NCBI GenBank assembly: GCA_037833965.1
Contig: AP031356.1
Span: forward strand, 7,400,501-7,464,500
Length of the DNA stretch: 64,000 nucleotides
Source: Marchantia polymorpha subsp. ruderalis
Lineage: Eukaryota; Streptophyta; Marchantiopsida; Marchantiales; Marchantiaceae
Direction: 5' to 3'
Positions 3,851-43,089 of this stretch are shown piece by piece; the first letter of the stretch is position 1; the number at the start of each line of letters is the position of its first letter. A model generated the notes under the pieces. That model worked only from the letters and a program-made list of their open reading frames with translations. It was not told the DNA's origin and did no database searches. The translations under genes were made by a program, and so were the position numbers.

Positions 3851-4408
3851 TCACTTTACTTGATGAGGAGCAGTCAAATCCGTCATGAGCAGTCCGGAAT
3901 TGAGGGAGGAGAGGGAATTGAGAGATCGGATGCGGAGCATGGTGTCGTGAGGCTCGCCGAACATTTTCTCGAACGTCATGGCCCGGCTCAGAGGAACTTT
4001 GGGCTTGGCGCCGATGGGGCGAGCAGCGTGCGATGCTGCACTCCAGATCATGTCGACGTACGCATCGCCCAGTTTTTCCATCACGGTGCGTCTGCTGGCG
4101 GACGACGTGGAAGCGGATCGGCGCAAAGCCGCACCTTCGGCTGCGGCGGCTGCCTTTTGCTCCTTCGCCTTACTGCCGTCGCTCCTGGCGCCATCGCCCA
4201 GCTTCGACTTCCTCGACGACAGCCCGAAGCGGAACGAGGACGACTTCGTGGGCGCATAGTCGCCCGCCGGTCCCAGCCTCCCATAGCGTTTGCGCAGCAG
4301 TAGCCTCACCACCCTCGACGGCTCCACGCCTGGCTCTCCCGCTCCCGCCGCCATCCTGCTCCTCCCTGCAGAATCAGCCCGCTTACTGCTGCTGCTCATC
4401 GGCCACAT
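3851..4408 (-). CDS. Small Ser/Ala/Arg-rich plant protein, unrecognised
   Basis: An uninterrupted minus-strand frame encodes 185 residues. I place the start at the ATG at 4408-4406 (protein begins MWPMSSSSKR). The frame extends a few codons further upstream but without an ATG. The protein is basic and low in complexity at first: basic residues around 32-43 (RVVRLLLRKRYGRL), a Ser-rich stretch at 56-70, and an Ala run at 86-90. It then becomes more ordered: residues 108-130 (VMEKLGDAYVDMIW...) look like an amphipathic helix, followed by FEKMFGEP at 147-153 and a Ser/Leu-rich tail. Third codon positions are GC-rich, as expected of coding sequence. There is no signal peptide or membrane segment. 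The arrangement of a basic, serine-rich protein with one short conserved-looking helix is common in plant-specific regulatory proteins of unknown function, but I do not recognise the family. A TATA motif about 800 bases upstream and a long CT-rich leader support a real transcript. Confidence 0.62.
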   Translation of the reverse strand: MWPMSSSSKRADSAGRSRMAAGAGEPGVEPSRVVRLLLRKRYGRLGPAGDYAPTKSSSFRFGLSSRKSKLGDGARSDGSKAKEQKAAAAAEGAALRRSASTSSASRRTVMEKLGDAYVDMIWSAASHAARPIGAKPKVPLSRAMTFEKMFGEPHDTMLRIRSLNSLSSLNSGLLMTDLTAPHQVK

Positions 4409-5175
4409 TTTCACCCCCTTCCTCACTTGCTCCAAATTCCAAATTCCCTCCCGCTCAACCGATTCTCCCCACTCCTCTCACGCCCAGGCACCGAGTGCTG
4501 CTGATGATGATGATGATGATTATGATTCCGCTCGACCAATTCCGTCACTCGATCATAGCCTGCCTGTGCCTCGACTATGAGGTAAGAGAGAGAGAGAGAG
4601 AGCTCAGATTAACGTTTATCACAAATTCAGACGTAGACGAAGACGAATGCTTTCAAAGGATCCCTTGCAGGCTACGAGAAATAAGTACGTTGCGAATCGG
4701 CCGCCACGCACGCAGGCCTGCCTTGGCGTGAATCGATAGGGAGGGAGGGGTCGGGTCAATGCAATCCAATCCAAAGCAAATTTGGGTTTTTAGGCCGAGC
4801 ACGCACGAAGGCGTCCCGGAGAAGGACGACGACCTGGCAGCAGGCACAGCTCGAGGCGAGCGAGCCCAGTCAAGCCAAGGGACGGGGGAGATGCTTTTCT
4901 AACTCTTTTTATTAGACGCCGGGGACCGAGTGATGTCCACGAGACAATCAATCGAAAGCGAGAGAGCGACGAGCGAGCTCAGATAAGGAGAGAGGGGCTC
5001 GCTCCCAGAGAGGGCCCCCCGCCTCGTCGTCGTCGTGGATCGAGTCAATCCCCCCCCTTCTCTAGCCCGAGCGCCATCGCCAGGTGCCAGCAGCAGCAGC
5101 AGCAGCAGACGACGACGGCGACGACGCGGCGACGGCGGCCCCACAACGACGTCGGTACGGATACGACCGGACTCC
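4409..5175 (-). promoter_or_regulatory. Probable long 5' leader of the small minus-strand gene
   Basis: Between the start codon and the TATA motif lies simple-sequence DNA: a GAT run near 4503-4522, a GA/CT run near 4586-4601 and seven CAG units at 5088-5108. On the minus strand the CT run is followed by a TTACCTCATAG sequence that could be the 3' end of a leader intron (AG near 4577). On the plus strand the same bases resemble a donor (GAG|GTAAGAG), so this reading is ambiguous. Long pyrimidine-rich leaders of this kind are common in bryophyte genes. The transcript start is inferred from the TATA position. Confidence 0.4.
5088..5108 (+). repeat. (CAG)7 microsatellite
   Basis: Seven uninterrupted CAG units, followed by an imperfect GAC/GACGG-type run to about 5137. 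It lies in the presumed leader of the small minus-strand gene. Confidence 0.9.
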
Positions 5176-5201
5176 GTCGCCTTGCACCGCCGCTCTGATT
5201 G

Positions 5202-5208
5202 ATTTATA
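5202..5208 (-). promoter_or_regulatory. TATA box candidate
   Basis: A minus-strand TATAAAT in a GC-rich setting (GCGTATAAATC). It would place transcription start near 5175 and give a leader of roughly 770 bases for the gene at 3851-4408. It is the best core-promoter match upstream of that gene; no transcript data were available. Confidence 0.4.
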
Positions 5209-8200
5209 CGCGCCGGCTTATATTTAGCTTATATTCTCCTCGGTTCAAATTGACGAACAGTGATAAGATTCGACGGAGGAAATCTCTTCGTTGACTCCGT
5301 CGTCGTCGGTCTGTCCGACCTTTGCGGTTGTACGGCCCCCCAAGGGGGCCGGAGGACACGTTCCTGACTGGCCCGTAGGATTCTACGCTTTGGGGGCTTC
5401 TTCTGTTGAAGAGGGAAGCAGCGAGAGGCTGAGGGATGACACGAACGAGTACGACGACGACGACGACTTTGTGGTCATTTTTAATTTGTGGAGCTAGGAC
5501 TGAATCTCAGAGTGACTCGGTTCCTTGTGCCTATCAACATTGCAGAGATCCGAGGTGACACACAAGTCCAGGTTTGGTTAGGGGAGTGCGGATGTACGTC
5601 GTGATGATGATTGTCCAGCAGCTCCCGAGCTGCGTTCAGGAAGCCGTAATGAGTGGTTGGATCCACAGGCCGGTCTTTGTCACCCGGCTCCTACACCAGA
5701 TCTCTCTCTCCCTCTCTCTCCCTCTCTCTCTGAAGGCATCGTCTGCATGTGCTGCGATTTTGTTGATCTCCGTCAGAGAGATCAACACGAGACTCTGTCA
5801 GCGGGCCTTTCTCTCTTCGCTCGACTGACTCTATCAAGCGACAAATTGCACAAGTCTAAGGGAGTGAGGGCGGCCTGAACTTCATCCAAGGAAGGATTTG
5901 TCGCAACGGTTATTTTGTTGGGCTCTGGGATGGAAAGTCGAACACTGGACGAGAGACATCGAGAGTAACGGCTAACTGCATGCTTTACTCAACGTAGAAT
6001 TTCCAAAGCGGTTCCGATAATTGAGAGCTTAGATCGCACGGTAATTTGACTCGACGACGGACCGAAGACTCTTGTGCTGCAGCTGTGAATTGCGTGTGAA
6101 GGAAGGAAGGTTGGGTGAGGTTCGGTAATTTCCCATCTTCAACTACAATTACAGCCACGAGCTGGACTTACCTGATTCATTCAGCCTTCATCAATCTCAA
6201 ACGATGGGAGCAATTACGATCCTCGTCCTGCTGGGGTCACTTTTCTCAGAATGTAACCAACTTTACAGAAAGGGCTGCCAGGAATGAAAAATCCCAAAGC
6301 TCCAATTTAAAAGTCCAGTGTCAGATCCTACGCGATTTGTAGGCATCGATCGTTTGCCGATCTCTCGGATCCTGAAAAGGATTGAGTTCTGTCAGCCTGC
6401 GGGTCTCGGGAGCACGAGGGACAAACGACAGATTCACGTACAAACCCAGGAGGGAGGGCATGTGGACTGACTAAAAAGCTGAGCGATCTGGAAACCAATT
6501 TTATCTTCCTACTCTCTGTCTGTCGTAGGAATGGGAGTGCACCACGCCAGCAATCCTCCGGCTCATGAACACGAATCTTTCACTGTAAATGGTTGGAACT
6601 CGAAAATGGATGCCGAGCACACTGTCCCGTTCTTCTCGCAGGCGAACTTATGACTGGCACTGTTGGTCCACGCACGGTCACAGGCATGATGGGCACCGTC
6701 AACCCATGACACCGACAGTCAGCCCAGGCCAGAAATGCGGCAGAATTCTATAGACGAGACCGCGCTGCTCAGGCCATGACTGCTCAGACACACGGTGGCA
6801 TAATTAAATCTTCGTGTCCCGTCTTGTGTGCACGGCTTTCATTCCCTCTGAGAAGAAGAAGAAGATGCACTCGGCATCCTCTCCTCCGCATGCCTCGATG
6901 CCAGTACTGTATGCAGAACATGCAAGGGCGGCGCAGATTATGCACAACAACATGAACTTTCTAGAAGCTTCAGAAATTCTATCCATCTAGCTGGACTCAG
7001 GAGCACAAATATGTGCGGCATATTTATGACTCAATCCTCCACCATATTTGGTCTCACAGCACGAGTATACCAAAGCCTATGATTTTGATTCGAGCGATTT
7101 CATTTACTAGAAAGAGTGCACGATCAATTAGGATGTCAATTCATAAAAATAAACAAACAAACGTCTGTGAACGAGACATACGACGTCAAATTTGACGTCA
7201 ACTCTGTAGCATAGTGATGGATATCTTGCAAAAGCAAGTTACTGTGTTAGAGTCTCAGGCTCTCCGCACTTCTGAGACTCCACAGCGCTGAAGGGAAGGG
7301 GTTGGACTGTCCGGATCAGCTCTGAAAACTCTAGACGGAAGCATGTCTCAACAATACGAATGATGTCGTCCTCATTGAAGACAGAATTTTGGACTCTCCA
7401 TGCACATCTCGGACCCTGAAATATTTGAAAATAAAATTCTTACATTTTACACTCATACTGTTATATTATATCAAATCATCGAAAATAAGATTTGATTCAA
7501 GCACGACCTCTTAATCGTTGAGCACTTACATATGAAGGACGTTGATATGTCTTTCCTAATGTATGATCAAAAATGCGACTGCGCCAACATTTTTTCGATA
7601 TAAACGAATTGATACGCAGCGACTTGAAATAAACTGATTCGACTGTACCAGGCAATATTAACAAATCATGGACACCATTAACCATAGCATTCTCTGCCAC
7701 GTCATGAAATTATGCAAATGTTATAGTCTAAAAATGAAGACATTTAGAAAAAAATACAACAAGTGCTCTACGTAGTTTGAAGACACAATATCAAATAGGT
7801 ATGACTCCAAACCTATCAGATTAAAAAATTCATATGATATTCAAATGCAAAATTTTAAACTGGAGATAGTTTATTCTTAGAGAAGTTTTATATTTCTGAA
7901 AAAAGAACAATCGTGTAATTATATATCTTTATATAAAGATTTATTAAAAAAATATAGAAACTATTAACCTGATATTTTAAAATTTTGAATTATTTCTAAT
8001 CTAGGTGAAGTTTAATAATTAAATGATCAATTTAATTTATTCAAAATAAACATCGTAATGTCAAACAAAAAATATATGCCTAACTCTACATCAACATCCA
8101 CAACAATTACCTGTGACATTTGTTCATATAAAACCCTTTTTTTCCTCAATAAGTCATCCAATTTAAAACATTCCTTGTTGTATCAACAAGTTCGCTTTCA

Positions 8201-11578: not shown

Positions 11579-14500
11579 ATGCATTCATCTTCAGAGTCCA
11601 ATCCTGTCCACAATTCAGATGTTCGCCGTCCTTCAGTTGATCAGTACAATCCAGCCAAGCTCTCCGCCTCGCTCTCTGTCCTGCTTGATAGAAATGCCCC
11701 GCTAGCGCGACTTGATGCAGGGGTTCTCTTGGATAGACTGAAGAGGGTTAAAAGCGAGAATGTTAGAGTATTCGACGATTCTTATTACGAAACCTTCAAC
11801 TTTGATGGACTCGACGCTCCAACAAAACCGGGGTTGACGAGGAGATTGTCGTCGATAAGATTGGTCAATCTCGAATCAGGCCTCGTGAAGGAGTTGTCAG
11901 TTAGAGCTCGGAGAAGCTCGGCAGACACAAGAAAGATCCAGATTACGAATGACCCAGACTTCGACATTCTTGAAGGTGTAGATGTTGAAGACATCTTCCA
12001 AGTCATCACTCGCCAGGGTCGCGAGCCACCATCTTCCCTCGAGTCTGAGAAGGAGGATGCCCCTGGTCCGAGCAAGGCGAATGTGTGTGAAGCAGTTCTA
12101 AGAGCTGTATTTGCTCCCAAATTCCAAGGAGAATATGAGAAGGAGGAGGAAGAGACAGTGGAGACTTTGAGAGACGCATTTGCTCTACCAGGATCTCAGT
12201 TCGACAATGCAGAGAGGCGTGCAACATATGCAGCTCGCTATCGTAGAGCAGGTAATTCAATTCGTCCCACTCCTTCCACATTTGCTCTGCGTTGTAAATT
12301 AAATCTCACGCAAGAGCAATAGGACAGTTTATGTTGCCCTCTTGGTTCAGTTGGTTTCAAACGATAGAAGTAAGCTAACAAGTTTTTGCACCATCATGAT
12401 ATGAAGTAGAGAAGACTTCTGAAGAATGGAAGATTTCGAATCAAAATCATCACTGAAGTCAGGTTAAATCTGGATGTTAATTCCGCCTGCTTGTTCGGCA
12501 TGCAGAGTTGAAAGCCAAATTCAGGGCACTTAGCAGGGATAAAGATGAGACCGTACAACCAAACCAGTTTGGAGATCAGGCCTCGTACGAATCATGGAAG
12601 AAACAGGAACTCGATAAAATCTTGGAGCTCATTACATCTTTGGGAGGCGAGTTGCCTCCGTTTTCAGGATCCGTGCAAATCCTGAAAATTGCTGCCTATC
12701 ATTTGAAGCCAGCAAAGTGGATCAGACGGTTGCAGTGCAGCAGAGGACGTTCTACATTTCAAGTATACTACACAGTCAAAGTACTTTCTTCTACTATACA
12801 ATCTCCCAGTTACCAAAAAGCTATCGATCTTGACGGAGATGATGCAACTTCACTCTTGGAGCCTGCATTTCTCAGCAAGGTGGTTGTGTGCAAGGGCAGC
12901 GCAGACTGGCAGGGCGAATCACCGTGGATCACGGTAAACAGGTAGACAGAAACACAACTTCTTGAAGCTTTCAAGCTTAGTTGCAAGAGATAATGTGTGC
13001 GGTTTATTGTGTTGATAACTTGTGCGAAGATTTTTCACAGAATTTTGTTCGAAGTCAGAGTGGTAAGTGCGCAGATGTTCGCTTGAAATTTCCTGTCTCA
13101 AATCGAAAGCTCTGAACCTCCGAACCATAATCATCCAGACTTCTAGTCACTTCTCGCACATTTAATCAGCTACATAAATTCAAAATATCCGAAATTTAAC
13201 TCAGCGCTAAGGAACATTGCTGTATTGGGTTCAGTCCACTTATCCCATCTCAGGGTGGCAGTGCCCGTCTTTGAACAGTCGACTTGACAGGCCTCTGCAG
13301 ATGCTAGTGACTCGAAAGAGAATCTACAGTCATATCTGCCTGAGATACGTGCAATTCTGACAATTTCTTAGTGCAACATTTCTAAAACCAAGACAGCTGC
13401 CGAATCAGCAGGTTATTCCGGGCCATCATCAACTCATCTAGCTCAATATCACGAATATAGTCAAACAAGTTCGCATCTCCGGTTGACATGAGAAATTTTT
13501 TATGCATCACAATTGAAATATCTCTGAACTGGCGCTTGAATAAGTCTGCATGATTAGGAGTGACCTTCGAACATTATTTGATCAGACGACCAATACGACC
13601 TTTTAACGGGATATGATGTCTATTGCAGTTTGCAGGATCAAATTCTCATCGAGTTCTGGGAAAGAAGAGAGGAAAAGTGTATAAAATTTAGAATTGCCAA
13701 CAAAAAGCTGGATCATGGTTGCATGCCCAATGTGGGATGTGGTCTCAAGCGGAAGGGCACTGGAAGACGGAAGGTAAGACCGTGATCTCTAACATAAAAG
13801 AAAAGATCATCTAGTAAGATATTAACATTCCACATTTCTTGGTGGGCTTTGTTCAATATGGACAGGTTTAGATTTTGGTTACTAGATCTCTAGAAGAGTT
13901 GTTAAACATCTTCACGGTGGAGTGCAGACAGCACCACGGATTGGGGACCTATTCCTCGGCCAAAAATACGTCAACTTCAGCCACATCGAGAGGCAGGCAT
14001 TAGCTGATGGCGGTATGCAAGGCAAAGCTCCCGAGGAATTGGAGAATCTGGCCGACGAGAAAAACCGCGATTGCATGAGCGTGGTCCAAATGCAATTTGC
14101 CGCCTGCTGTAAGAATGATTCAAGGTTAGTAAGCAACTGCCACCGATCGCGCGCAAAAATTGACCTTTTTCATCATCTTTGTGGAAGAGCAATTTCACTT
14201 CGAATTCATGAGTTATTTTAAATCTCCACAGGTGTCGAAGCGTTTGGATACATAATATGCTTCTTCCTTGTGGGGTCAAGCCTTGATTATTCCGCACTCT
14301 CAGAGTAAACTAAACCGTGGTTGATTTGACAGAGATACACCTCCGAACGAGTTGTTACTGCAACCGCCGGTGGAAGATCTGGGGAGAGCATATGACTGTC
14401 TTATACGCGTTGCTTTTCAAGCAGATAAGGCAGGTGTGAACTGCTAACGATTTTGTCTTACTTGAAATAATTTGGACAGAGACATGCAGAGCAATGTGGA

Positions 14501-17500
14501 GGAATTTGACACGATTCGTAACTTTCGTGTGATTTTGTTCTCGCGAACTTAAGCATTCATCGGTGTGTTATTTTTTAAAACATACCGGATTATAACTCGG
14601 ATGGTAAATATGAGTTCTTGAGTCTAAGTAGCGTTTGAGGTGAGAAGGTATAAGTAAGAAAAGTTGTCTAATCCTAGAAAATTATCTTCGAAAAAGATTT
14701 CCTATTTGTATTAGCATTTTGAGTAGGATAAATATAATGGCAAGAAGTATCTAACATTGTGCACTGATAGACAACAGTATGCACGGCTATTGCATGTGGT
14801 GTGTTCACCATTTCTGCTGTGTTCTTTCAGTGTACAAGCTCGGAAAGAAGTGGGAGAAGGTAGTTGAAGACTTCGCTGCCCACTACCGGATAAGAACGGA
14901 GAGATGCCAACTTGGTTTGGTTCAAATTCTGGCCGAAAAATTCGAACCGACCTTCAGATACCTAAGTACTGTTGTTGATGATTGGTCACCAGTATGCACA
15001 GCAGCCAGAGAAGGAAAACTGACAAAGACTGAGCTTGCTATGCACAGCGATATTGCTCGGAGTACGTATGTAACACCAATTGTTTCTTTCTGTATATTCT
15101 TTCCTGCTCATGTGTCTAATGTCTCTTGAATGGTGTGATTTCAAAACCAATGGAGTTGTTTGTGATATGTTTCAGATGACGGATTTGTCAGAAACTGAAC
15201 ATAAACTGAAAAGAAAACTGAATAATCTTTTACTAATTTTAGTTCACTTCTTATGAGTATCTAATGAGCATGGCTGGGAATGCGGTTCCATATCGAGCAG
15301 TACTAGCTAAACCAGCAGAGGAGGCTTTGGAGAACTTCCAGACAACGTTCAATGAAAGTCAACCGGCTGGTTCGTTATCCAAGCTGCTGGAACTTTTGGC
15401 GCTCATTCTTTGCTGGGATCCAAATGTAAACGAAATTTTAATCCCCCTCAGGGGATGGATCGAGGTACTTCGCTGTCCACAATCGTCGTAAAATGTTTAT
15501 TTTCATCTACCAGATGGTAGTAATATATGTTTGCTTTGAATGAACCAGAACTATCAGCAGCTGTAGTTGCTTAAGATATTCACATCTATCTTGCTCTCCA
15601 GATATTGACAAAGTTGCAACTGGTAAAACAAACGAATGTTAAAACAGGACTCTTGCGAGAAGAGGGTACGAAGTAAGCTCTTCTACGACGCTAATGGCGA
15701 AAAGCAAGAAGAGATTACGTTACAGAATTTAATCGAGACAGTAAAGCTGGTCCGTTCCGATATAGAGGAGCACGGAAAAGTGTATCAGCGCGAATTTCCA
15801 CCTGATATCAAGTTGCCCACAATCACCGCACGCATTCATTACAAACTGGTACGACGTCGTATGTTGATGGTGCATGGTTGCAAAATTTGATGCTTCTTTT
15901 CACACAAGGATTAAAAGTTGTAGATAATGAATGAATCGGAATGGGTTATGTCGCCGTTGGAATATGCTGGATACATCATGCTCACTTTCATAGTTCTGTT
16001 TGCAGGTTATCGAATACACAAAAAGTTTTGTAGACAGCGTCGCTGAAAAGACCTTCACTAAAGAATACGGGGTAAGAGGACTACACTTTGTAGGGCCTTA
16101 ATAGTTTGAAGTCAAAATTGCAGATCACGTCTGTATTCATGCTGGCGTTGTGTCAGAGAATTGAAAAGTTGATTCGATGTGAGCACTCTATGAATATTTT
16201 GCAAAGAGTAAGTAATTGTAGCGTATCCGCTTCTCCGATTCCGTTCCGATTTGTACAGGAGCTTGCTTCAGAGTTACTAGCTCTGCAACAAGACGTTGAA
16301 AGACATGGAATACAACTTCCTTTCGCGGATATTCATCACATTTTCGAGAAAAATATTTCCGAGTGGCTCGCCGTGATGGAACCTCGCATGTTTGAGTGAG
16401 TTATTTATGTGCCCATGTGTTAGCAGATTGTTTTTATGCTCCAATTGATATCTTGTTGTCAATCGGTCCGTCACAATTATGCTCGGAAACTGGATAAGTC
16501 CATGAAGAAATGTTTTACACCATAGATTTCTCCGTAAATGTGCAGCTTCGTCATGAACAGTTGCAGTGGTGAAAGATGGGAACCTTTAACCAAGGCCACA
16601 ACAATGACAGAGACTACCTTTTTATATTCGGGATCTGTCATTGGTACGCTCATCTCCTTGTGAACTTGAGTCAGTGAATTCCGGCATTTATGTCCTACCT
16701 TCCACCCTTGCTGCAAACATTGACGCCCTATCCCAACTAGCTTGGGATGTATCTAGTTAAAAGTACCTGGAAAGCACTCTTAGTTGAAGAAGGAATGGGC
16801 AGGTGAGCTTTTACACAGAAATGGTGACTGACAAGGTGCAAATGCCTGGCTCCTCTGTGAACAGATTTGTACTGGATGATGACTGAATACGTTGATGAGC
16901 TAACTTCCCGGCTTCTCATTTTACCGTCCGGGCTACAATATGTGTGGCACATCGAGGCTGGAATTTGTGCTGCTGTACAACTTTACGTTGGACGGCTTGA
17001 AAAACTTTGCCTCCGGGATTTGCCTGAAGAGGAGCGGGGAACTGTGGATGATGACACTGATGAATCGGATTCGGACATTGGAACCATCACTGTCAATGCT
17101 CCGCACGCTCCTTCTCAGTATATATCAATGTCACTGTGTGTTAAGGTAACAACAAAGTGTGCTCTTAGAGATATCTCAACCTATTCAAAAACTTTAGGTA
17201 CTGACTTTTTCTGTACTCAGACTCCTCGCAGTTTCCCATGAAGTAACTTGTTTGTGACCACATGTCATACAAATCTTGAGCTAAGTCGGGCTTATACTTA
17301 GACGGATACCATATACTGATCATGGATGCCAACAACGCACTGTTTGTCAACTGAGTGCTTTATGCTAGACACCGTTATTTCTAAGATCGAACGTTTTTTT
17401 TCTCTGCCTGCACAGCTCAACAACATCAATGAGGTCATACAGCGCCAGCAAGAGCTTGAATCTTATCTGGATAAGAAGCTTCAGTTTTTTGTTCCGAGCG

Positions 17501-20500
17501 TGAATGACGACGATGAACTATCTATGTAAGTTCATATCTTCTGAAGAAGTTGCAGCATTGAATAAGTTGACAACAGAACAACTCACTGACACGACTGTAA
17601 TGATTGCGAGATAGAAAGAGCGTTCTATGCATCATTATATCTTGGTCCCCTCTTTCCGCCTTTTCTTTCCGTGGATCACTTCATCCTTCTAGAAAGAAGA
17701 TTTCATATTGAACCTTATACTATGGCTGATGACTTCATACATTTGCTTTTAGCGACGACTCCAAGTCCTCCGTGTTATGCTGATGATCCTTTCGACATGA
17801 AATAGGTCGGAGGACTTTGGAACGGAAGAGAGATTCCAGTCTGTAAATGACGACCTGGATGCAAAAAATAAAGTTGGGGAGAAATTCAAGGATTTGGGGA
17901 AAGTTATTCATCACACTTACAACAATGTGATCGGATCAATCGTTGAAAGGATGCAGGTAGGCCCTGAATAAGCTCTAAACTTTCTCTAAGTTTGTCTCTG
18001 AAAGGCTTGCCACAATGAATTAAACTCCAAATGCTTTGACTCGCTTCTACTTGCATGATTGTAAATTTTTTTGGCTTAATTCTCTAGTTGATCCTCTAGT
18101 TAACAAAATGTGCTTTCCATATTAACTCCAGATGTATTCCTTACATGCAGGGCCGGCTCAGGTTGGAGCTACAGACAGTGCTGAAAAGCGTGCCCGAGGG
18201 AGATGAGTATGCAATTGAGGATGTATTGGAGCCTTTGACCAGCTACATGGACGAAAATATAGTAGTTATGAATGACTGGCTGCACCCAACTATCTTCAAG
18301 CGTTTACTCAAGGTAAGATGTTAGCCAACATATTTGATGAACAGCTAACACTGGATTTATCTTGTGTTGGAAGTGTTGCCCTATATAGTCGTTGTAGCCA
18401 TCGTAAAAGGTGAACTGAGTACAGAAAAATTCAAACCGTCATATGGACTTGTGCAGGAAATGGCCAAGGCGCTGTTCTTTTGCATGGAAGAGTTTGTTCT
18501 GAACAAGGATGAAGACCCCACCCCCATGACACCACATCAAAGAGAAATGCTCAAGAGAAGTTTAACTGAACTTTATGACTATTTCGATGGTTACGGACAA
18601 AGTAATGGACGAGGATTGACTTTGAGTCAAACCCATCAAGCTTGTGCTCGTCTGCGTAAGATTCTGGAATGTTGGGATCTGAGCACGAGAATATTATGTA
18701 CTCGGTACTGGCCTGCTTGGATAAAATTTAATGACTACATGTTTCAGAAGCAAGAAAGCTCTCGCCAAATACGTTACAACTCTGAGGATAATCTGAGGAG
18801 TACTTCCTCTTCGTCAATAGATGATGAACCTTTGGACGAAGAAGTGGAGCTTCATGTGCTAGACTACTTGTGGCTTCTTAAGCAGAGAAAAGACGACGAA
18901 GCCAAGGAGCTAGTTGCTACTCAGAGTCTAATCGCTACTGAAAAGACGACACAGGTTTGTGGTTGAGAACACTATCTTTGGATATTTTATTTGCTAAAGC
19001 TGCATCGTTCCACGCTGATCTGAGAGATGGTCCTCGGTTTCTGAAGTCAGAACTTTATCGTAATAATATTTGTGGATCAGTCTTTGAACTTGTCGTCCTC
19101 CCATAATGTGTGTTCTTGAGATTGGGAATATGTTCAGAGACTTATATGCTGTTGTTGATTTCGCAGTTCATATTTGGTCTGCCTAGAGATGAGGAAATCA
19201 TCGCATCATTCAGTTGCAGGTAATTCGTGAATTCAAGCATGCCTTCTTAAATTCAGGAAAAGTTTAATAAATTCCATGATATTCATGCACGATCCATTGT
19301 TGGACAGTTTTTGTGTGGTTCCAGTTCGAGCTTTGGAGATTATTTTCGAGTTGAATATTATCCAAGTATTTTTTCAGTTTATCGCTTCTTAATAAATCTT
19401 ATTCTCTGCCTTTAACTCTACATTGTCTTTATCTACGTGTGGTTTATCTGACCTTGAAGGGACGCATCTAAAAAGGAGGGTACTTTGTATATTACTACCC
19501 ACCATATTGCGTTTGCCGAGAACAACGTAGTAGCAGCTCACAATCCGCGGTTATTCGTGCTTTCTTTCGAACGCCTTATGTCCGTGCACACAAAAGGCGA
19601 GAATACTGTGGTCCTTGTACCATTCAATCTCCGTCCAAAATCATTCACAAACTTATCAGATTCAGCTGCTGTCCCTCGCACTATATTCGACCAGGTAATT
19701 CAGCCCGTCCATCCTCCAAGAATCATCGTGATCAATACAATGAACATTTTATTTCTTCCCCTACAGGAACTCCTGATCTTTGGGGTCGAGGGTTAGAGAA
19801 ATATATATACTTGACAGTGTACTTGATGTATTCTTCTTAACTAATGTTGTTGCTGTAATGGTACGTCACATGATTTGTTCTTGGCAGATAGAAGGAAGTG
19901 GAACGTACTTAGAGAAAAGTATGAGGCCCTCATATTCTAAACAGAATAGTCTTTCCGACATAGTTCTTAAAGGTATAAACCTTCTTACCTCTCAACTTTA
20001 CTGTAAATGTCCATGCATTTGTCATTCTTCTAGACGAGCAATTCTTCTTTTATCTGAGACTAGTTTCAAGGATGGTTTCTTAAGTCTGACCAAAAAATAC
20101 TACTCCAAAATAAGATAAAGACAGTACTACTTGACGGACAAATTAATAACATATAAACAGATTCATCTTGTGAGAACTTGGGATAGGACAGCAAGAACCT
20201 CTTGAAACTGGAAAAAATTTAGTGTTATCTTGGAATCGAGGCATATCTTCTGTATTTTGCGGACTTTACGTTTTTCGGGTAGGTCTTTCTATCAAGGGGC
20301 AAGCTTGGGGTGGGATGTTCGACGAGCTGTAGGCTGCAGGGCTCGGTTGGTAGTTTCCAAGGGAGGAACAGATATGAAAGCCAGCATCGCCTGAGTGAAA
20401 TTCGTACCTTGAACAGAAGGCATCTAACACGTTTCACTTATGATGGTTACAGAATATCATTGTTCGAAGCGCCAAGGTGTGATTCGCCAACTACGTGGTA

Positions 20501-21037
20501 CACTGGTGATTTCAGCAACGCATATCACTTTCGAACCGCTGGAAATTCTAAAACAGGAGGTACGTTGTTGTGAATCCATCAGTTCTTTAAGGCATAATGC
20601 TGTCCGCCTAAAGCATGATGCTTATCGGTCTAAGAAGACACTGTGCTGGAGCTTTCTTTTGAGTAAAATCATTTGAGCTACAATTACAGGAGTTTACATA
20701 TTTTCCCTCTGCTTATCTTCGCAGAGAGAATCCATGGACTTTGCAAGCATCAGCAACGTAGCAGAGAGAAAAGGTCTGCGAACCAGTTGTCTGGTGATTG
20801 ATCTTAAATATGGAGGTCATGTACGTAATTCCTCTCACCTTTCCTCGCAGACAATACGTTGTACATGTTTGACAGATTTCTCCTCCTTGTCAATAGCGAG
20901 CCTTCCATCATTGTTTGATCTTAACAAGTTCGTGCGTTGAACTTCTTTGACAGATTGAGTTCGTGGAGTTTACAAAAACCGAACTCTCACTTCCAGAAAT
21001 AGTGAAGGAGATTCAGAAATTGGTTCTATCTACATGA
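11579..21037 (+). CDS. Munc13-like MUN-domain protein with two C-terminal GRAM/PH-like modules
   Basis: Coding exons: 11579-12251, 12506-12933, 13636-13773, 13928-14124, 14333-14433, 14831-15069, 15243-15464, 15648-15848, 16006-16071, 16124-16207, 16259-16395, 16546-16643, 16865-17145, 17416-17525, 17806-17956, 18151-18312, 18457-18954, 19167-19219, 19460-19694, 19888-19972, 20453-20559, 20725-20820, 20954-21037. These sum to 4446 bases, 1481 residues, with GT-AG ends and matching phase throughout; an in-frame TAG precedes the ATG. N-terminal 1-280 is charged and probably disordered. Residues 280-413 resemble a degenerate C2 fold (SPWITDQILIEFWER). About 440-1000 is the MUN core, with MHD1-like signatures such as WEPLTK, SVIDLYWMM and QYISMSLCVKLNNI. 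About 1055-1185 is MHD2-like (IEDVLEPLTSYMDENI, IFKRLLKEM, MTPHQREMLKRSL). Residues 1263-1358 (FGLPRDEEIIASFSCR, EGTLYITTHHIAF) match GRAM, and 1386-1475 (RGTLVISATHITFEP) looks like a second copy. MUN proteins prime SNARE-dependent vesicle fusion, and GRAM modules bind membrane lipids, so a tethering/exocytosis role at a membrane is inferred. The acceptors at 13928 and 15648 and the donor at 15069 are least certain. Confidence 0.85.
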
Positions 21038-27230: not shown

Positions 27231-29070
27231 GGTTCTTTTCACACTGTCACTCTCTGAGTTCTTCTGTGCTAGAGGATATTTGAGATTCATCTTCGCTGCA
27301 GTCCAAGCATGTGCGCATGCATGCTCGTCAATCATCAGTGCTTTCCATTTCGGATGAGTCCATCCATCTCCATTCTTATTAATCATGAGATTGGATTTCA
27401 GTTAGATGCAAGGGTAAATATATTTAGTTGCCCATTTGAAGTAAATTTTTATAAGTAAAATGGCACAAGAGGTTGGATGTTCATCCTCTTGGGGCATTTC
27501 ACTAATGAAGTGGAGAGATTGTTGTCACTTAGTTTTAAAAATGTGCATGATTAGTTTGGGATGAAAAGTTATATCAAATTTGTTGCTTTTCATTTCTTAC
27601 ACGTTATATAGTTTTGGAATGTATATTTATTCATCCTCCTTGGCTGTACGACGACGAGTGGAAAGTCAACAATCGATGTACTCAATTAAAGTAACACATA
27701 AAACGGTGTTTATTTTCTTTATTAATCATGGAGATTTTCAAAGCTATGGCGGTCACTTCGAGAAGCTTGTAATATACCACAATATGAGATATGAGATTTT
27801 GCATATTTATTGTGTTATTATTGAATTTTGAATCTCGTTTAGGTGATGAAACATTCTTTGGTGAAATTTAAATAACATCAATCACTGTACTTGATAATTA
27901 CACATGTAAGTATTACCTGATTTAAAAATTTACAGATATAAATTTAAAACAATTTTTATTTGTAGATGCATTATCATCTACTTCTCAACATAGTGTTAGC
28001 CTCATACAAATTGCTTGATGTTATTGATGTATGACTTGATGATGTCTTCTCATAATTTGATGTTATTATTTAATATTGTGTATGAAATTAACTTTATCTT
28101 TTTATTATAAGGAATTACGGTGTCATATTATGACTTGATGAACGCAATCATGTAAGATGAGACAAAATAACAAATCATCACAATATAAAACATATAAACT
28201 TAAAATTTTCAAATTGTTTTGAACAAAACATATACATGTACTATCCTCACCTAATATAAAGTTATGATGTAAATTGCACACGTCAAATTTTTCGTGGAAC
28301 AATAAATATTGTTGATTAAATATGTCAAGATTACTAAAAAAGAAAAAGTATGATATCTTGATATTTAAGCTAATTAGTTTTCAGCTACAAGTAAAAGTGT
28401 TAATCATAACTCTACATATTTTCAAAGCCAGAGCTACAAAGAGTTGAATTGTGTGCAGTCATTGACTTTATATAATCTTTTTTCTTCCGATCTTACCGCA
28501 ACCCATCTAGAAAATGAATATTACATATCTAAGTCTTTTTCTTCAACGTAATTTGATAATTCTAATCTTAGTAAATAAAAGTAAAGAAAAGTTTTGCTCC
28601 AGATAAGATAATCATCATTTATTTAATAGCATTACACCTTTTTCACTCTTAAAGGATTGGTAACCATACGGATCTTTTGTACAAACATATACATATCACA
28701 ATCACATGTACATCATTTTTATGCTCCAGCAACGGCTGAAACCGCATGAATATTAAAAAAATATCTTGTGTGAGTTGGCTAATATTTGGGTGTACCTATA
28801 ACTTTTTATTATAATCTTCCTGATTTCAACGTAATACATCTATGAACACAAAATTGGGAAAAAAAATTCTTAATTACATGGAGGATTGTTAAAAGTTTAC
28901 TAAGAGACATATCTCTATACAACATTGTAAACCTTTCAGATCAAAATTTGCAACCAACACAAAACTTCCTCTCAGTTTTCCACTAATCGAATCAAATTCA
29001 TTTACTGGAAAACTGTAGATAACCTCACACTGAATGAATATTTACTTATATCTCTCATATGTATTTTCCA

Positions 29071-29090
29071 CCCCCCCCCCCCCCCCCCCC
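29071..29090 (+). repeat. Homopolymer of 20 C
   Basis: Twenty consecutive C residues, preceded by TTTTCCA, inside the AT-rich block. It is the only long G/C homopolymer in the window. Such runs are also prone to length errors in sequencing and assembly. Confidence 0.9.
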
Positions 29091-29651
29091 TAATTTCTCG
29101 TTCCTCATATCGACATAGCATGATGATACCAAAGATCTAGTATGGTTTAAATTCATGTTATTCTCAATTTCTCAAATCGTCTTCTTCAAATGAAACAATT
29201 CCTTAATTTTCTTCTTTTTTTAACCATTCTAGTTTTGTCTCTCGCACGTCACATTCATCCTATTAGCTTATGTTATATAAATTCACTTCCCCCATTGAGT
29301 TTCATTATTATTTAACTTGTCTTTCTTTCAAAGATCTCTTGAGTAGATTTCATACAGATATATAATCACTCGGGACTTTGATCTGCGGGAACACCACATG
29401 GATTATATTTTCAGAATTACCCTAAATGAGATATAGACAGACGGGTGGAGGAGGAATTTTTAATTGGAAGCGAAATTCATTAATCTCTCCCAAACCATAC
29501 GTTATTCTGAAAATCATGCCTAAAAACTTTATGGCAAATGAGTTGCAAAGTGAGACTTAGGTAATCTATGAACCTTCACACATCCAGCAAATTGGCGAAT
29601 TTTATTTATCAGAATATGCCAATCACTACCGAATGAAGATTTGCGCGCAGT

Positions 29652-29677
29652 GAGTTACACACATATGTGTGTAACTC
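29652..29677. repeat. 26-bp perfect palindrome
   Basis: The sequence equals its own reverse complement: a 13-base half-site, GAGTTACACACAT, followed directly by its complement with no spacer. It lies in the AT-rich block with no gene nearby. Confidence 0.8.
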
Positions 29678-30697
29678 TTAGAGATCCAAGAACTAATGAA
29701 CATGAGAATCACTCATCTTCTTCTTCATTTATCCTTTCTCTTATGACTTATGCTTTAGTGGGTAAAACTTGCAATCTTGTCACAATACGCTACATACAAC
29801 TCTCTAGGATCACAGTACAATGGCAAATATCAAAATGTTGCACAAACACCTAGACAGAAAGTGGATCCATCACCAAGTGAAAAATGCTTCATAAACATCA
29901 TATACATATTGGTCAAGTGTATAGAATGAAGTCGTTCACCGTCGCAAGCCCACCAAACTTGATGTATTGAATGATTAAAATGTGAAGTAACTCAAATGAA
30001 TATCTTATTAGACAAAAATGGACACAAATGTTCCTGTAAATAACAACCCAATTTACCTTTCCAGAGCAAATTTACTTTAGAGAGAGTAGAATAAATGTCC
30101 TAGTTCAAGAAATCGAATGTTTGAGTGGGCTGTATATAGAGTGTGCACCTGTACTCTATTGTAATGGAAAAAAGTTTAATATATTCGCTATTTGTACTTA
30201 CATTGAAAAAACTACTTGAAGGTGCATTTTTCTGAAGTACGTACGGTGATATCAATGCAAGATGCGGATAGGCAAGGTTATGGACCACAACCAAGTAGCT
30301 AAAGACCCCATTTCTCACCCTACATATGAAAAGACAGATGAAAATTAGTTGAAAATAAACTTTTGTACTCTCCAGGGGAAGTTCGCATTTCTGAAGAGCG
30401 TGCAACGTCATCAGCCTCTAAAAGGCCCTCTTATTTCATTCCAACATGATCAATTTTGTACTGAGCTACTTGTGAACTCGGTTGCAAATATACCAAGACT
30501 CAGTCTGTCGTGGTGGTGCAAGTGAACAGTGAACGAGACAAGTTTGGTGCAATTCATTCGCCGAGATTTGCAGCCACAAGCGAAAATCCAAGAAAATCAC
30601 TGAAACAGGAAGCATGGGACTGAAATTAAATTTTAGCAAGGAAAAATAATTTAATTCTGGTTTGAAACCTGGGATCCAATATTGCGGGGGAGAGACG

Positions 30698-30730
30698 ACT
30701 CATTGGGCTCAACCTTTGAACCCAATGAGT
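30698..30730. repeat. Inverted repeat, 10-bp arms
   Basis: Arms ACTCATTGGG and CCCAATGAGT match perfectly around a 13-base spacer. It is one of several hairpin-forming repeats spread through the AT-rich block. Confidence 0.6.
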
Positions 30731-32613
30731 TTGGTTTGTACCGGCAATTCATTTCAATATTATGGTACCATTCCACTAGTGATGGTCTACAATCATCGAA
30801 ATAGAAGGACTAATTTTAACCGCGATAGATCAAAATGCACGCTTTTTTTCTGACCTTTTATGATGGGTTTTAATATGGACAATTATTTGATCAGCCGCCT
30901 TAAGTTGACCTTGTACTATATATCGCCCTCCTACAAGCTTCCTACACGAGGTTAACATGGTTTTGAGGAATCCACACGTTGATAGTTTGCACATTGCAAT
31001 GCCGAGTTTTAAATGTCATTGTGTTTTCATGATAAAGTGACTGCGCTCCGAGCAGAATTCAAGATGAATAAAGAATTGTGAAGGAAAATTCCATCCCTGC
31101 AAAGTGTATCATAAAGAAAAGGTAAACTCTAAATTTGAATTTTAGGTAACAGTCTGATTGTGTCAATATTTGGATAGATATCTTTCACAACGAAGCACTA
31201 ATCCATTTATGTATTCTTTACCTTGCACCAAACCACGCTATAAATTCGATAATGTTAACAATTATATAGCTTTATTAAGATTATATATTCAAATTCTTAG
31301 TTTAATGATATTGAGTCATCACATAATATATCATAACAAAGATGTCGAAACACGACAAAACTCTACGAATAATGTGAAGACATTACTCTCTACTAGAGAG
31401 AAAAGTTGCCAAACATAGTCACCAACTGGAATATGGATGTATGGCTAGATATTACTTGGATGGTATAGTTGACTACGTAATTTGAAATGGTATCCACTTC
31501 TTTCTTAATGAAAAGCTTTAGATTTTATCATGAAAACAACTGATTGTTTAATGTATTCCACTTTTCTACATCTAATAGAGTTATGGAAATTATTTTTTCC
31601 TTATAGTTTTCTTATCGTATGCAAGATATGATCAGAAAGATCAGCTCAAACTGTCTGATATTAATTAAAAAAATTGTGAATAGTTTATATTCTTTACAAC
31701 ATTGATCTTATCTGAAACAACGCATCACTATTTTTTCCTCAACTTTATCGTTCAAGTGATTCATCGAACGTATTTACTCTCAGCTATCAATGCAGAAAAT
31801 AAAAGTAAGAAAACTAAGTTGAGAAATGTAAAAAACTTCAAATTCCCAACAAGCAACCCACCGCAGCTGAAGCTGTGCTGATTTTTCCAGACACACCAAT
31901 TGTTGTGCTCCTGGTCCTGGTAGGCGCCCACAAGGAGGCCAACGACGGCCATGTTTGTTAGTTGGACACAATATGTACTTTCCAAGTAATGACTCCAACG
32001 CTACTTGAATGGGCTATTAAAGTTAGAGCTATTTGTCATGTGCTTTTGACTTTGTGCGGCTAGCTGTTCATCTGATTCTTTTGACCCTCGGCGGGGTTTC
32101 CTCTGGCCTTCGCTCTATATTGCCAATTTATTCCACGCGCCACGCTTTCTCTTGCAACTCATCTTCACGGGCCTGACCACTGTCTGATAAACTTATAATC
32201 TTTTCGTGTACAAAATTACACAAGCTCTGAATGTCATAAAAAAAGGTCCAGATACTCACACTTTTATAATTGACGTGTGTTGTGACCGTTGGATGCGATA
32301 TACATTTGAGATTTCGTAGCCATGTACTCCACGTGCCCTGTTTCTTCATCAGATGCACGGAAATGATAAAAGCTTATAGCACGGCCATTATTTTTACAAA
32401 CAGAGATAAACATATTGAAACCTACGTTACAACAAGTTTCCTTCAACGTTGAAGTACATATAAGCTAGACTCTATCTTCTATAGCACGAATTAGGACGGT
32501 TGTATACGATCATCTATGTACACGGGGCTAATCTACTATCACATGATGAACAATATTCTAAAGCAAGAATTATTATGTTCTACAGAATTAAAGCCTACGA
32601 GAACTGATTCAGT

Positions 32614-32655
32614 AGATAAACCTATTCAGGTTAAAATTCCTGAATAGGCTTATCT
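32614..32655. repeat. Inverted repeat, 17-bp arms
   Basis: Arms AGATAAACCTATTCAGG and CCTGAATAGGCTTATCT pair at 16 of 17 positions around an 8-base spacer. Confidence 0.7.
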
Positions 32656-34657
32656 ATGAACAAAGAGATTAACAAAGAAATTTGGAAATCTCATGAAATT
32701 TCAAGCATCATTTATCAGTGTCTGAAACCATGTACTTCAGAGTTACTGCTCTCTCGGTTGGTCGGTTGCTAATAATCGTAGGTGAGTTTTCAATAGTCCC
32801 GCTTGTGGCGCCTTCAAATAACCTACATTCTGACTTTCACGTGGTTAGAAACAAAGACATTACTGAGATCTTGTTATCCGTTTGTTTACTTTAGAAACGA
32901 AGACATGAGTGAAACCGTGTTCAATTAATTGCAAAAATTGCAAATCCCAATCTATAATGAAAAACCAGGGTTCTAGAATTTCTAAAAAATATTTTGAAGA
33001 ATGTAACTTTGTAGAATATGTAAGAAGCTCGTAATTACTAAAATTTCCAGAAGTTCCAACACTGAGTTTCAAAGTACATGGTAATATTCTAAGGAATGAG
33101 CAAACGCTACCTGTTGATTATATAATCTGATGCCAAAAGGTATGGATCGAAGCTTCCTTCTGGTCTAAGAATTTTTGTTGATGAATATTATCAGATCTTC
33201 TGAGAGAAGCATATGAGTTTTTTAGACTTTGAGAATTTGTTTAGCAGAATTTACTATTTTGCATGTATAATATTGGATCAAACGTTGATTCTATTTTTAT
33301 TATATTCACTAAGTTATCTCTCACAGGGCGCCAAATAGGTTTAGGATAATCCAGATGGATATAAACTATTCAATCGTTGTATCTGCATGATTCTTGCCAT
33401 CTGGAAACAAAATGGGAAACAAAATCTGTTTAGACAGGAGATCTACATGGAGGGCTTCTTGAATTCCGCATCTCTTCGACAGATCTCCCACTATATTATC
33501 AGGTGAGCGTCATACATTCTCACAAGATTCTTCAATTCGCTGTCATACAGCTTCGTCGACCGTTACCCTTGTCACGGAATTCAGAGGTTCAACAGTCTGC
33601 GACTTGATACGCTGATTTTACTAGAGGACTTTCCGTTCTCTTCAAATGACAAACTGATTTAGCTTGTTTGTCAGTCCCGTCTAGTTTTCCGCAACATGTG
33701 AGGCTCACAAGTGTTACATTGCTCCTTTCTGTATAGAAGGGAATATGGGTCTGTGGATCATAATCTTCACAATTGGAAATTGTCATAAGGTTGAGGATGT
33801 ACCCACATCCTCAGAGGATGCCTCGGCAGAGTCCGCACTCCGTTGTAAGTTCTCAGCCTGCATGTAATATTCATGGCAATTGAACAATGTCTGCCAAAAT
33901 ATGGTATCATTGTTGCCCATTCCACTTCGTTTTATTGCCACCTGCTTTGAATTTACTTGAATGTTGGTTAGTTATTAGCCTGTTGATCTAGATTGAATAC
34001 GCGTATCGAGTGAGTATGCTGATATAGAATAGCTCCCCAATCCTGACAGAGGTCAACAATACAAACTTTTGTTGGAAATTTAGAGATTGAGAAGACAGTG
34101 AATTCGGTAAACCCTAAACCCTATTAGCTTCATATACTTCAGTACGAAATTGAATATATTATTCTGATATTCTTAAATTCCATTTATACCAAATTGAATA
34201 TCATGGGATACTTTATTATAAATATTTTGTGACATTTTTCATTTGTATAATTTTGAACGATGGTACTGGAAGCCTTGGTGCTACATATCTAGCTTGCTTT
34301 AACCTCCCCCTTAATCCGCTTTGGTTTTATTGAAATATAATTGAAATCTACAAATAACATTCTTTTAAATCAAGAAAATTGTTTAATAATTTAGTTCCTT
34401 TATGACTATCAGTTTCACATATTATGTAAGATTTGCAGAGCGAAACATTAGAACAATGTAGCCATTGAAGAGCTTACACGAATGATCCATATAGAGTGAG
34501 TTCTTCTATGGTTATCATCTCACATATGATGTGTGATTTGTTAATATTTTGCTCTGCAAATGGATGAATATACATTATGGTATGTTCATTATGTCTATTA
34601 TTGTTTTTTGATCAAATATTATGCATTTGACCTCAAATTTCATGAATTATGAACTAT

Positions 34658-34688
34658 ACTCTCGACATGAATACATCATGTCGAGAGT
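34658..34688. repeat. Inverted repeat, 13-bp arms
   Basis: Arms ACTCTCGACATGA and TCATGTCGAGAGT match perfectly around a 5-base spacer (ATACA). The arms are less AT-rich than the DNA around them. Confidence 0.7.
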
Positions 34689-36817
34689 TTAGTGGATTTT
34701 TTTATTGCAAAGCATGTGGAAAATTTACACATACATAATAATTAAATTATTCAACACAAATATGGTAATCAATCATGCTTGTGATTGTTGATTTGAACAA
34801 GAATAATGATAATTTGAGTAACTCAAATGCTTTTAGTTTACTTTAAATGGAAGTATCATTTGTAAAAGTAATTTAGATACGTTTTTTCATTTCAAATATT
34901 TTTGAAGGTAGAAAAATGAAATCTTAATAAATCATGAAAGTTATTTTATATTTTATATGTATGCAATCTATTTTATGATCTTAATTATTTTTAAATATTT
35001 TTAAACTTTTGCTCTTGATGTCTACTCTGATTCTAATTCAATTGCTATCAGAGTGAACAAATGACAAATGAATTTAAAATATCGATACATGAAAATATGA
35101 TAGTTAGCATGACAATTTATCTATAGATCTAGTACATGTTATTATCGAATCATGAATGTGAACAAGAATAAATTTGGCCTTATTGCGGTTAGTGTATTTT
35201 TTCATATGTTTAGATGAATGATCGTTTAAAAATATATATTTTACTTTATTTTTGTTGTTCATATGAGTAGCTGAATTTAGTTCTTAGTTCTTTAACATTC
35301 ACCCTTTAGGTACTACAATCTCATTAATATATCATTTATGTACTATATCGCATAAATATAAAAGTATCAAGTACAGGAATCATTATCTTTTGATAAATAT
35401 TTGTGTATGTATCTACAAACTATTTAAATGATTATATTTTGTGAATAATTCTAAGATTGTATTTCAATCATAGAATTTGTTCACATAAATCATTAACTTT
35501 ATTTCTTATGATGATGTCATTAAAAAAATGCAAAATCACAAATTTAATCTATTTATTTATGTAATGACAAATTTTATGAAAGATTAAAAATACAAGTTTC
35601 AAAAATAATAATTTTGTGCTATTATGGAAAAAAAATTTGGATTTTTTTGGGCAATAATCGGCTTGGAAATAAATAAATTAGACGTTCTTCAGATAAATTT
35701 AAATAAATAATTATTTTTTATATTTTTATATTTTTTATTTAAATTTGAAATAATTTCAGCAGTAAAATGTATGAAAAAATCTTCTAATAAAAATAGAAAT
35801 GTAAGTAATAAAAATATATCAAAATAAAATGTTTGATAATAGTTAAATCATTTTTAAACTTGTTTTGAAAGGCAGCTTAAAAAAAATAAAATTTGATTTA
35901 CATACAAATCTCAACAGACATAATATTTTCTTTTCTTTAGTTAAGATGAAGTTTGAAATTGTTTTCAGATTTATTATCAAAACAGTCAAAGCGATTTCAA
36001 TTTCTACTTCATACTTTATAAAGTGTTATAAAAAAAAGTTAAGGTTTATTTTATTTTGGTTTATTTTGGTAGATGTATTTAATAATGTTCTATCAAATAT
36101 TATATGCATAAATCAATATGAAGCTTTGTCATCATATTATGGACAATCTTTCTTTGGTAATTGATTCAAGATTTGAACAATTAAATGTATTTCCTTAAGT
36201 TTGTGAAAATTCTGAAACATTTTTAGAAGTTTGACATCAATCATTTGGACATGCCACTGAATAGATTATTGCAGTACATTATTTCTTCTGAAATTATCAC
36301 ATAATTTTATGTTGATGAATAGTCAAATAATCAATCAATTGATAACACCTTGTGATTTTATCTTTATTAAAATTCAAAATCAGTTTAAATATTAAATACT
36401 TAAATTTTATTTTAACTGAATAATAATACATGTTAAAAAATGTAATGATACATGTGCTCTATTACAAAAAAAAATTAAAAATTATATTCTAGCATTTAGC
36501 TTAATAAAATACAACGCTTGCAAAATCAAATATTTAAAATAAAATCTTTATCCAATTTTCTATTTTGGAATTATATGCAGTAATTTTTTCATTGATTGGA
36601 AAAAAAAATAACTTTTTTTCTTTCTCATTTTTCTATGTGTGTTTGTATATATATATTTTGTGCATAGTTTCACAACATATATGAAATCTACATTTATGCT
36701 TTAAAGTGCAGCTTTTGTGTTTTTTATTATTTCAAGAGTTTTCAAAAACATATTTCATGATCACAAATGTTCAAAATTGTCAAAATTATTATTCATAATT
36801 TGCACTTTGCACATTAC

Positions 36818-36854
36818 TCATTTGTCACCATTTTGATGAAATGGTGACAAATGA
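36818..36854. repeat. Inverted repeat, 16-bp arms
   Basis: Arms TCATTTGTCACCATTT and AAATGGTGACAAATGA match perfectly around a 5-base spacer (TGATG). The arm content suggests a selected or recently formed hairpin, not a chance AT-rich match. Confidence 0.75.
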
Positions 36855-39662: not shown

Positions 39663-39910
39663 GGACTCCCTTACCTTTCTATTTGCTATAAAATTCGAAT
39701 TGAACTTTGTAGTACGAGGCGACGGCTGTTACTTTGCATGTGCTTTCTCTCGACAAGTTGACAACGTCTAGTGGACCTATATGTGGATGCACATTATGGA
39801 CTCCCGTAACTCCCATCTAGTTTTATCTCTCAATTTGAACTTTGTAGTATGTGTTAATGGTTGGCATTTTGCATTTGCTTTATTCCTTTAAGTTGACAAC
39901 ATCTAATAAA
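39663..39910 (+). repeat. Diverged tandem duplication, 135-bp period
   Basis: Three anchor words recur at a constant offset of 135 bases: GGACTCCC (39663 and 39798), TGAACTTTGTAGTA (39701 and 39836) and GTTGACAAC (39757 and 39892). The sequence between them is partly conserved, including TTGCAT-TGCTTT. This is an ageing two-copy tandem duplication in the AT-rich block. A third copy is not obvious on either side. Confidence 0.75.
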
Positions 39911-42900: not shown

Positions 42901-43054
42901 TTTTCCGAATTATTATTTAAATTTTGAGAAGTATGATTGGAAATGTACTTTCATATATATAAAGCTAATATTTTTTATTAGTTTTTTGACTGATAATATA
43001 AATCATAAATTATTTATGTTTTAAATTTCACATTTTAATTTCATATTTATGTAT

Positions 43055-43057
43055 GTA

Positions 43058-43081
<24 letters not shown>
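43055..43081 (+). repeat. (TA)n microsatellite
   Basis: An uninterrupted TA run of about 27 bases in the AT-rich block. Shorter related runs occur at about 40554-40571 and 37757-37774. Confidence 0.85.

Positions 43082-43089
<8 letters not shown>

What the first reader, a model, noticed from the sequence alone, without database searches (positions are those of the whole stretch)
11579..21037. Plant MUN-domain protein with two GRAM/PH-like modules instead of a C-terminal C2
Animal Munc13/BAIAP3 proteins carry C2 domains around the MUN core, and plant PATROL1-like (DUF810) proteins carry MUN without GRAM. Here a 1,481-residue product has a weak C2-like segment, MHD1- and MHD2-like regions and then two GRAM-type repeats (GTLYITTHHIAF at about 1290; GTLVISATHITF at about 1405). 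This suggests a fusion-priming factor that finds its membrane through lipid-binding GRAM modules. It may be a little-described branch of the family.
Basis: partly seen in the sequence, partly recalled or inferred. Interest (0 to 1): 0.75.

Follow-up and report, generated by a model that had tools for sequence, protein, structure and literature searches.

The report
Plant MUN protein with GRAM tail
A land-plant gene appears to encode a vesicle-fusion helper of the animal Munc13 type whose tail is one clear and one possible lipid-binding GRAM module instead of the usual C2 domain; I found no description of this combination, and what it does has not been tested.

Summary
Pfam finds MUN (PF06292, 26.7 bits, cut-off 24.2) and GRAM (PF02893, 37.1 bits over two stretches, cut-off 23.6) in the joined product. 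The first GRAM module passes alone (29.6 bits); the second does not (15.4 bits). No C2 profile matches. It is not PATROL1-type: PF25761 matches two other genes of this genome (up to 338.5 bits; both lack a GRAM tail) but not this protein. Its only PDB sequence matches are four Munc13-1 chains, none significant (E 0.068-0.16). Best explanation: a Munc13/BAIAP3-like SNARE-assembly factor anchored to membrane by GRAM instead of a C-terminal C2. Domain content is shown by profiles. The exon joins rest on splice sites and phase, not on cDNA. Function, lipid and location are inferred. Nine paper searches showed no description in what I saw of them. Occurrence in other plants could not be tested.

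The parts
11579..12251 (+). exon 1, start codon; residues 1-225, no known domain
   Evidence: open frame while the other two frames hold 8 and 16 stops; in-frame TAG just upstream of the ATG; coordinates
12506..12941 (+). exon 2, start of a C2-like region (recalled pattern only)
   Evidence: GT-AG, in phase; no Pfam match
13041..13062 (+). exon 3 (22 nt), ILFEVRV
   Evidence: phase and splice sites only
13636..13773 (+). exon 4, C2-like region (recalled pattern only)
   Evidence: also in the fragment on contig C2
13886..14124 (+). exon 5, end of C2-like region (recalled pattern only)
   Evidence: fragment on contig C2 differs at 6 of 239 bases
14333..14433 (+). exon 6, lead into the MUN region
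14831..15069 (+). exon 7 (E8); donor uncertain
15243..15464 (+). exon 8 (E9); acceptor uncertain
15648..15848 (+). exon 9 (E11), joined directly to exon 8 because the 21-nt exon would leave a 25-nt intron
16006..16071 (+). exon 10
16124..16207 (+). exon 11
   Evidence: flanking introns 52 and 51 nt
16259..16395 (+). exon 12
16546..16643 (+). exon 13
16865..17145 (+). exon 14
17416..17525 (+). exon 15
17806..17956 (+). exon 16, residues 1016-1066; start of the best MUN stretch (1036-1163)
18151..18312 (+). exon 17, residues 1067-1120, MUN; with the start of exon 18 it aligns to Munc13-1 chains (not significant)
18457..18954 (+). exon 18, residues 1121-1286, end of the MUN stretch and acidic linker
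   Evidence: single-exon fold all-helical, pLDDT 51
19167..19219 (+). exon 19, start of GRAM 1 (FIFGLPRDEEIIASFSC)
   Evidence: GRAM best stretch 1288-1348
19460..19694 (+). exon 20, core of GRAM 1 (GTLYITTHHIAF)
   Evidence: single-exon fold all-beta, pLDDT 65
19888..19972 (+). exon 21, linker between the GRAM modules
20453..20559 (+). exon 22, start of possible GRAM 2 (GTLVISATHITF)
   Evidence: GRAM 15.4 bits alone, below cut-off
20725..20820 (+). exon 23, possible GRAM 2
20954..21037 (+). exon 24, end of possible GRAM 2 and stop codon

Best explanation
One gene encodes a 1,505-residue protein: an N-terminal region (with at most a degenerate C2-like domain), a Munc13-type MUN rod, then one clear and one possible GRAM module at the C-terminus. 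It most likely works like BAIAP3/Munc13-4 and CAPS: the MUN rod holds SNAREs and helps them assemble, while the GRAM tail, a PH-like membrane binder, anchors the rod on one membrane where BAIAP3 and Munc13-4 use a C-terminal C2. Without a recognisable C2, recruitment would follow lipid identity rather than calcium; the site is most likely endosome/TGN or plasma membrane. Shown: gene model, MUN and GRAM profile matches, absence of a PATROL1 match. Inferred: membrane anchoring, SNARE work, location, calcium independence.
For: MUN and GRAM both above curated cut-offs in one joined product. MUN region alone 29.4 bits, E 5.3e-7. The 4 PDB sequences listed at E up to 10 for the MUN region are all Munc13-1. 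PF25761 matches an exon of a PATROL1-type gene of the same genome at 338.5 bits but not this protein, in the same call. The GRAM exons follow the MUN exons after a 212-nt intron, in phase. Literature, passages only: CAPS combines a PIP2-binding PH domain with MHD1, and Munc13-4 appears to need a membrane anchor (C2B) coupled to SNARE binding (PMC3849599); BAIAP3 sits on late and recycling endosomes and interacts with SNAREs of endosome-TGN traffic (PMC5496627); the GRAM domain is PH-like and in GRAMD1b senses anionic lipid and cholesterol together (PMC7957428).
Against: No transcript; exon joins rest on splice sites and phase. GRAM 2 is below cut-off alone, and GRAM 1 too if exon 19 is left out. 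The MUN score is only 2.5 bits over cut-off in the whole protein, and the PDB matches are not significant (E 0.068-0.16; 0.24 for the whole protein). No fold evidence for GRAM (low confidence). No relative from another species was examined. Neither GRAM module is strongly basic (net charge about +1 each), so strong phosphoinositide binding is not evident.
Confidence: 0.55

Rival explanations
1. The GRAM modules bind proteins rather than lipids, so that the protein is a tether recruited by a protein partner on an endosome.
For: For exon 20 alone the MTMR6-like GRAM model scores above plain GRAM (19.5 against 17.5 bits) and the Vps36 model follows; modules are nearly neutral. That some PH-like domains bind proteins is recalled.
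Against: The MTMR6-like and Vps36 matches are below their cut-offs, and with exon 19 included plain GRAM fits best.
Confidence: 0.2
2. Two genes: a MUN protein ending after exon 18 and a separate small GRAM protein starting at the ATG at 19146, in frame with exon 19.
For: There is an in-frame ATG at 19146, 21 bases before exon 19, and exon 18 read past its donor meets a stop after three codons.
Against: Only 212 bases separate the two exons; donor and acceptor join in phase; a polyadenylation site, promoter and untranslated regions would have to fit there.
Confidence: 0.06
3. It is an ordinary PATROL1-type plant protein with a different tail.
For: PATROL1 is the plant MUN protein described in print (PMC3913439, PMC11427605, passages).
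Against: No PF25761 match at E up to 10, while an exon of a PATROL1-type gene of the same genome gives 338.5 bits; the two PATROL1-type genes end at LPKKLSGTK-stop and LPKV-stop.
Confidence: 0.04
4. It is a rod-like tether (CATCHR type) that captures vesicles but does not act on SNARE assembly.
For: The Munc13 and CAPS region resembles the CATCHR region of exocyst-type subunits (PMC3849599, passages); residues of Munc13-1 needed for syntaxin opening were not checked here.
Against: The sequence matches are to MUN and not to exocyst, COG or GARP models.
Confidence: 0.15

Closest known systems
BAIAP3 / Munc13-4 (UNC13D), animal short Munc13 proteins
   Same: MUN core followed by a membrane-binding type of domain at the C-terminus
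   Different: Theirs is a C2 domain at each end (passages); here no C2 profile matches and the C-terminal match is GRAM
CAPS/CADPS
   Same: MUN-type region combined with a PH-type membrane domain (passages)
   Different: In CAPS the PH domain is central and precedes MHD1 (order partly recalled) and there is no MHD2; here GRAM follows MUN
PATROL1 (plant Munc13-like; DUF810 name recalled)
   Same: Plant, called a MUN-domain protein in print (passages)
   Different: In this genome that type is matched by PF25761, and the five stretches tested of one such gene gave no PF06292 match; no GRAM tail
Plant C2-GRAM proteins such as rice OsNOP
   Same: Plant GRAM-bearing proteins (mentioned in PMC8875736, passages)
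   Different: That they lack MUN is recalled; here a MUN match and no C2 match

Membership tests
MUN-domain (Munc13-type) proteins | match to the MUN profile PF06292 above its curated cut-off | tested here: met
   26.7 bits against 24.2 for the whole protein; 29.4 bits for the MUN region alone
MUN-domain (Munc13-type) proteins | significant sequence match to a solved MUN structure | tested here: inconclusive
   4 of 4 PDB sequences listed at E up to 10 are Munc13-1, but E is 0.068-0.16
BAIAP3 / Munc13-4 subfamily | C-terminal C2 domain after the MUN region | tested here: not met
   no C2 profile among Pfam matches at E up to 10; GRAM matches there instead
BAIAP3 / Munc13-4 subfamily | N-terminal C2 domain before the MUN region | tested here: inconclusive
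   no Pfam match for the 309-residue fragment, but HMMER's filters can drop a degenerate C2 and only a recalled strand pattern speaks for one
PATROL1 | match to PF25761 TPR_PATROL1 | tested here: not met
   no match at E up to 10, while a PATROL1-type exon of the same genome gives 338.5 bits in the same call
GRAM domain, module 1 | match to PF02893 above its curated cut-off | tested here: met
   29.6 bits against 23.6 in a fragment holding exons 18, 19 and most of 20; 17.5 bits without exon 19
GRAM domain, module 2 | match to PF02893 above its curated cut-off | tested here: inconclusive
   15.4 bits, E 0.017 alone, below cut-off; the whole-protein match of 37.1 bits counts two stretches
GRAM / PH-like fold | PH-like beta sandwich with C-terminal helix | tested here: inconclusive
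   a single exon folded alone, seven strands, pLDDT 65; too incomplete and uncertain to decide
CAPS | C2 and PH domains before the MUN-type region | tested here: not met
   the GRAM match follows MUN, and no C2 or PH profile is among the four matches at E up to 10
Munc13-type priming factor | promotes SNARE assembly | not testable with these tools
   needs biochemistry

The most novel reading that the evidence does not exclude
Land plants (at least this lineage) keep an animal-type UNC13/BAIAP3 fusion-priming protein beside the PATROL1 family, and in it the calcium-sensing C-terminal C2 was exchanged for tandem GRAM modules, giving a calcium-independent, lipid-addressed priming factor that flowering plants may have lost.
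Probability: 0.35. Interest if true: 0.65.

Novelty: new variant of a known kind. Interest (0 to 1): 0.45.

Why it matters
In the plant papers whose passages I read, Munc13-like priming is represented by PATROL1, whose identity with animal MUN domains is weak (PMC3913439, passages). A second protein that matches the Munc13-type profile and has a different membrane anchor would give a direct way to ask whether SNARE priming by MUN proteins predates the split of plants and animals, and how its membrane address can be changed by domain exchange.

Full report
Check of the observation. The window is G000:C7:7400501-7464500 of a 241 Mb genome in 9 contigs. Reading the plus strand from 11579 to 21037 I built a gene model from open frames and GT-AG sites. 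The first version had 25 exons and 1,512 residues. One 21-nt exon left a 25-nt intron, which I take as too short, so I joined its neighbours directly: 24 exons, 23 of 23 introns GT-AG, 1,505 residues, a single stop at the end, exon GC 45.5% against 39.0% in introns. The exon 7/8 join (15069/15243) remains uncertain, and two introns are short (51 and 52 nt).

Domains. In pieces, the MUN region alone gives 29.4 bits; a fragment with exons 18, 19 and most of 20 gives GRAM 29.6 bits; exons 20-21 without 19 give 17.5 bits, below cut-off, with the MTMR6-like model at 19.6; the second module alone gives 15.4 bits (E 0.017), below cut-off, with a HARE-HTH model at 18.3, also below cut-off. Ten single open stretches from the gene gave no Pfam match except the three sub-threshold PH-like models on exon 20. 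The two modules cover overlapping parts of the GRAM profile (6-65 and 13-91 of 112), which argues for two modules rather than one split module, but their direct similarity is weak (score 37, reached by 104 of 5000 shuffles). The C2-like segment has no Pfam match at E up to 10. The PDB sequence search with the MUN region lists four sequences at E up to 10, all Munc13-1, E 0.068 to 0.16; with the whole protein one, E 0.24; with the GRAM region none.

Structure. Only single exons were folded. Exon 18 is all-helical, pLDDT 51; exon 20 is all-beta with seven strands, pLDDT 65. Fold comparison of the latter is inconclusive; the exon lacks the N-terminal strand and the C-terminal part of a GRAM domain.

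One gene or two. Exon 18 ends in an acidic linker and is separated from exon 19 by 212 bases with a donor and acceptor that join in phase. Exon 19 starts with FIFGLPRDEEIIASFSC, the beginning of the GRAM match. A separate gene could start at the ATG at 19146, but would need all its signals in that short space. I hold a single gene far more likely; only cDNA can settle it.

Relatives in the same genome. PF25761 (TPR_PATROL1) gives ten rows on contig C5, two at 28.49 Mb and eight at 9.205-9.208 Mb, which I read as two genes. Their frames end in LPKKLSGTK-stop and LPKV-stop, and the three GRAM places listed in the genome are elsewhere (a lower bound, since it missed this gene too). Our protein does not match PF25761, and the five open stretches tested of the first PATROL1-type gene do not match PF06292, one of them giving 338.5 bits to PF25761. 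So this plant has two kinds of MUN-like protein. A protein search lists 27 rows: 22 on C7, this gene exon by exon, and 5 on contig C2. The C2 copy consists of two blocks, 93.6% and 91.1% identical to window 13633-14140 and 15920-16351, lying next to each other with introns kept. Substitutions in its second block are as frequent in exons (7.8%) as in introns (7.9%); in the first block exons differ less (3.7% against 6.9%). With a frameshift in exon 4 and most exons missing it looks like a dead fragment.

How it most likely works. MUN-type regions bind SNAREs and help them assemble, and the animal proteins couple this to a membrane anchor: a C2 in Munc13-4, a PIP2-binding PH domain in CAPS (PMC3849599, passages). 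BAIAP3 sits on endosomes and interacts with SNAREs of endosome-TGN traffic (PMC5496627, passages). GRAM is a PH-like domain that in GRAMD1b reads anionic lipid and cholesterol (PMC7957428, passages). By analogy the GRAM tail is the anchor and the MUN rod the SNARE-acting part. Calcium control seems unlikely because no C2 profile is found. All this is inference from domain content.

Known or new. Paper searches for MUN with GRAM (no paper), DUF810 with MUN (no paper), Munc13/BAIAP3/GRAM combinations, PATROL1 with MUN (two papers), Munc13 in Arabidopsis, Marchantia and Physcomitrella showed no description of such a protein in the listings and passages that I saw; several lists were partial. The library holds open-licence papers only, the original PATROL1 paper was not held, and no database of plant proteins was searchable, so the protein may be annotated there. 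I rate it a new variant of a known kind, interest 0.45.

Noticed in passing
L024 (G000:C2:17783000-17792900), 4349-5310: Partial copy of this gene (exons 4-5 and 10-12 with introns, about 1.78 kb missing between) with a frameshift in exon 4; looks like a dead duplicate, possibly carried by a mobile element.
   Followed up: partly
window 27500-44500: AT-rich tract (500-base windows of 18-42% GC) beside DNA of mostly 41-50% GC; no open frame of 130 codons or more, no tRNA, no Rfam match at gathering score; the slice 40001-42000 matched only itself at E 1e-10.
   Followed up: partly
window 47841 and 49799 (+): Pieces of a TIFY-type gene: QEDCRDYLKGKG at 47841 and a tify domain at 49.8 kb (47.7 bits); resembles PEAPOD (PPD), a recalled name. 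The open frame around 47841 had no Pfam match of its own.
   Followed up: partly
L022 and L023 (G000 contig C5, 28.49 Mb and 9.205 Mb): Two PATROL1-type genes, one with its profile match in two stretches and one in eight small ones.
   Followed up: partly
window 19146: In-frame ATG 21 bases before exon 19, a possible alternative start for a short GRAM-only product.
   Followed up: no
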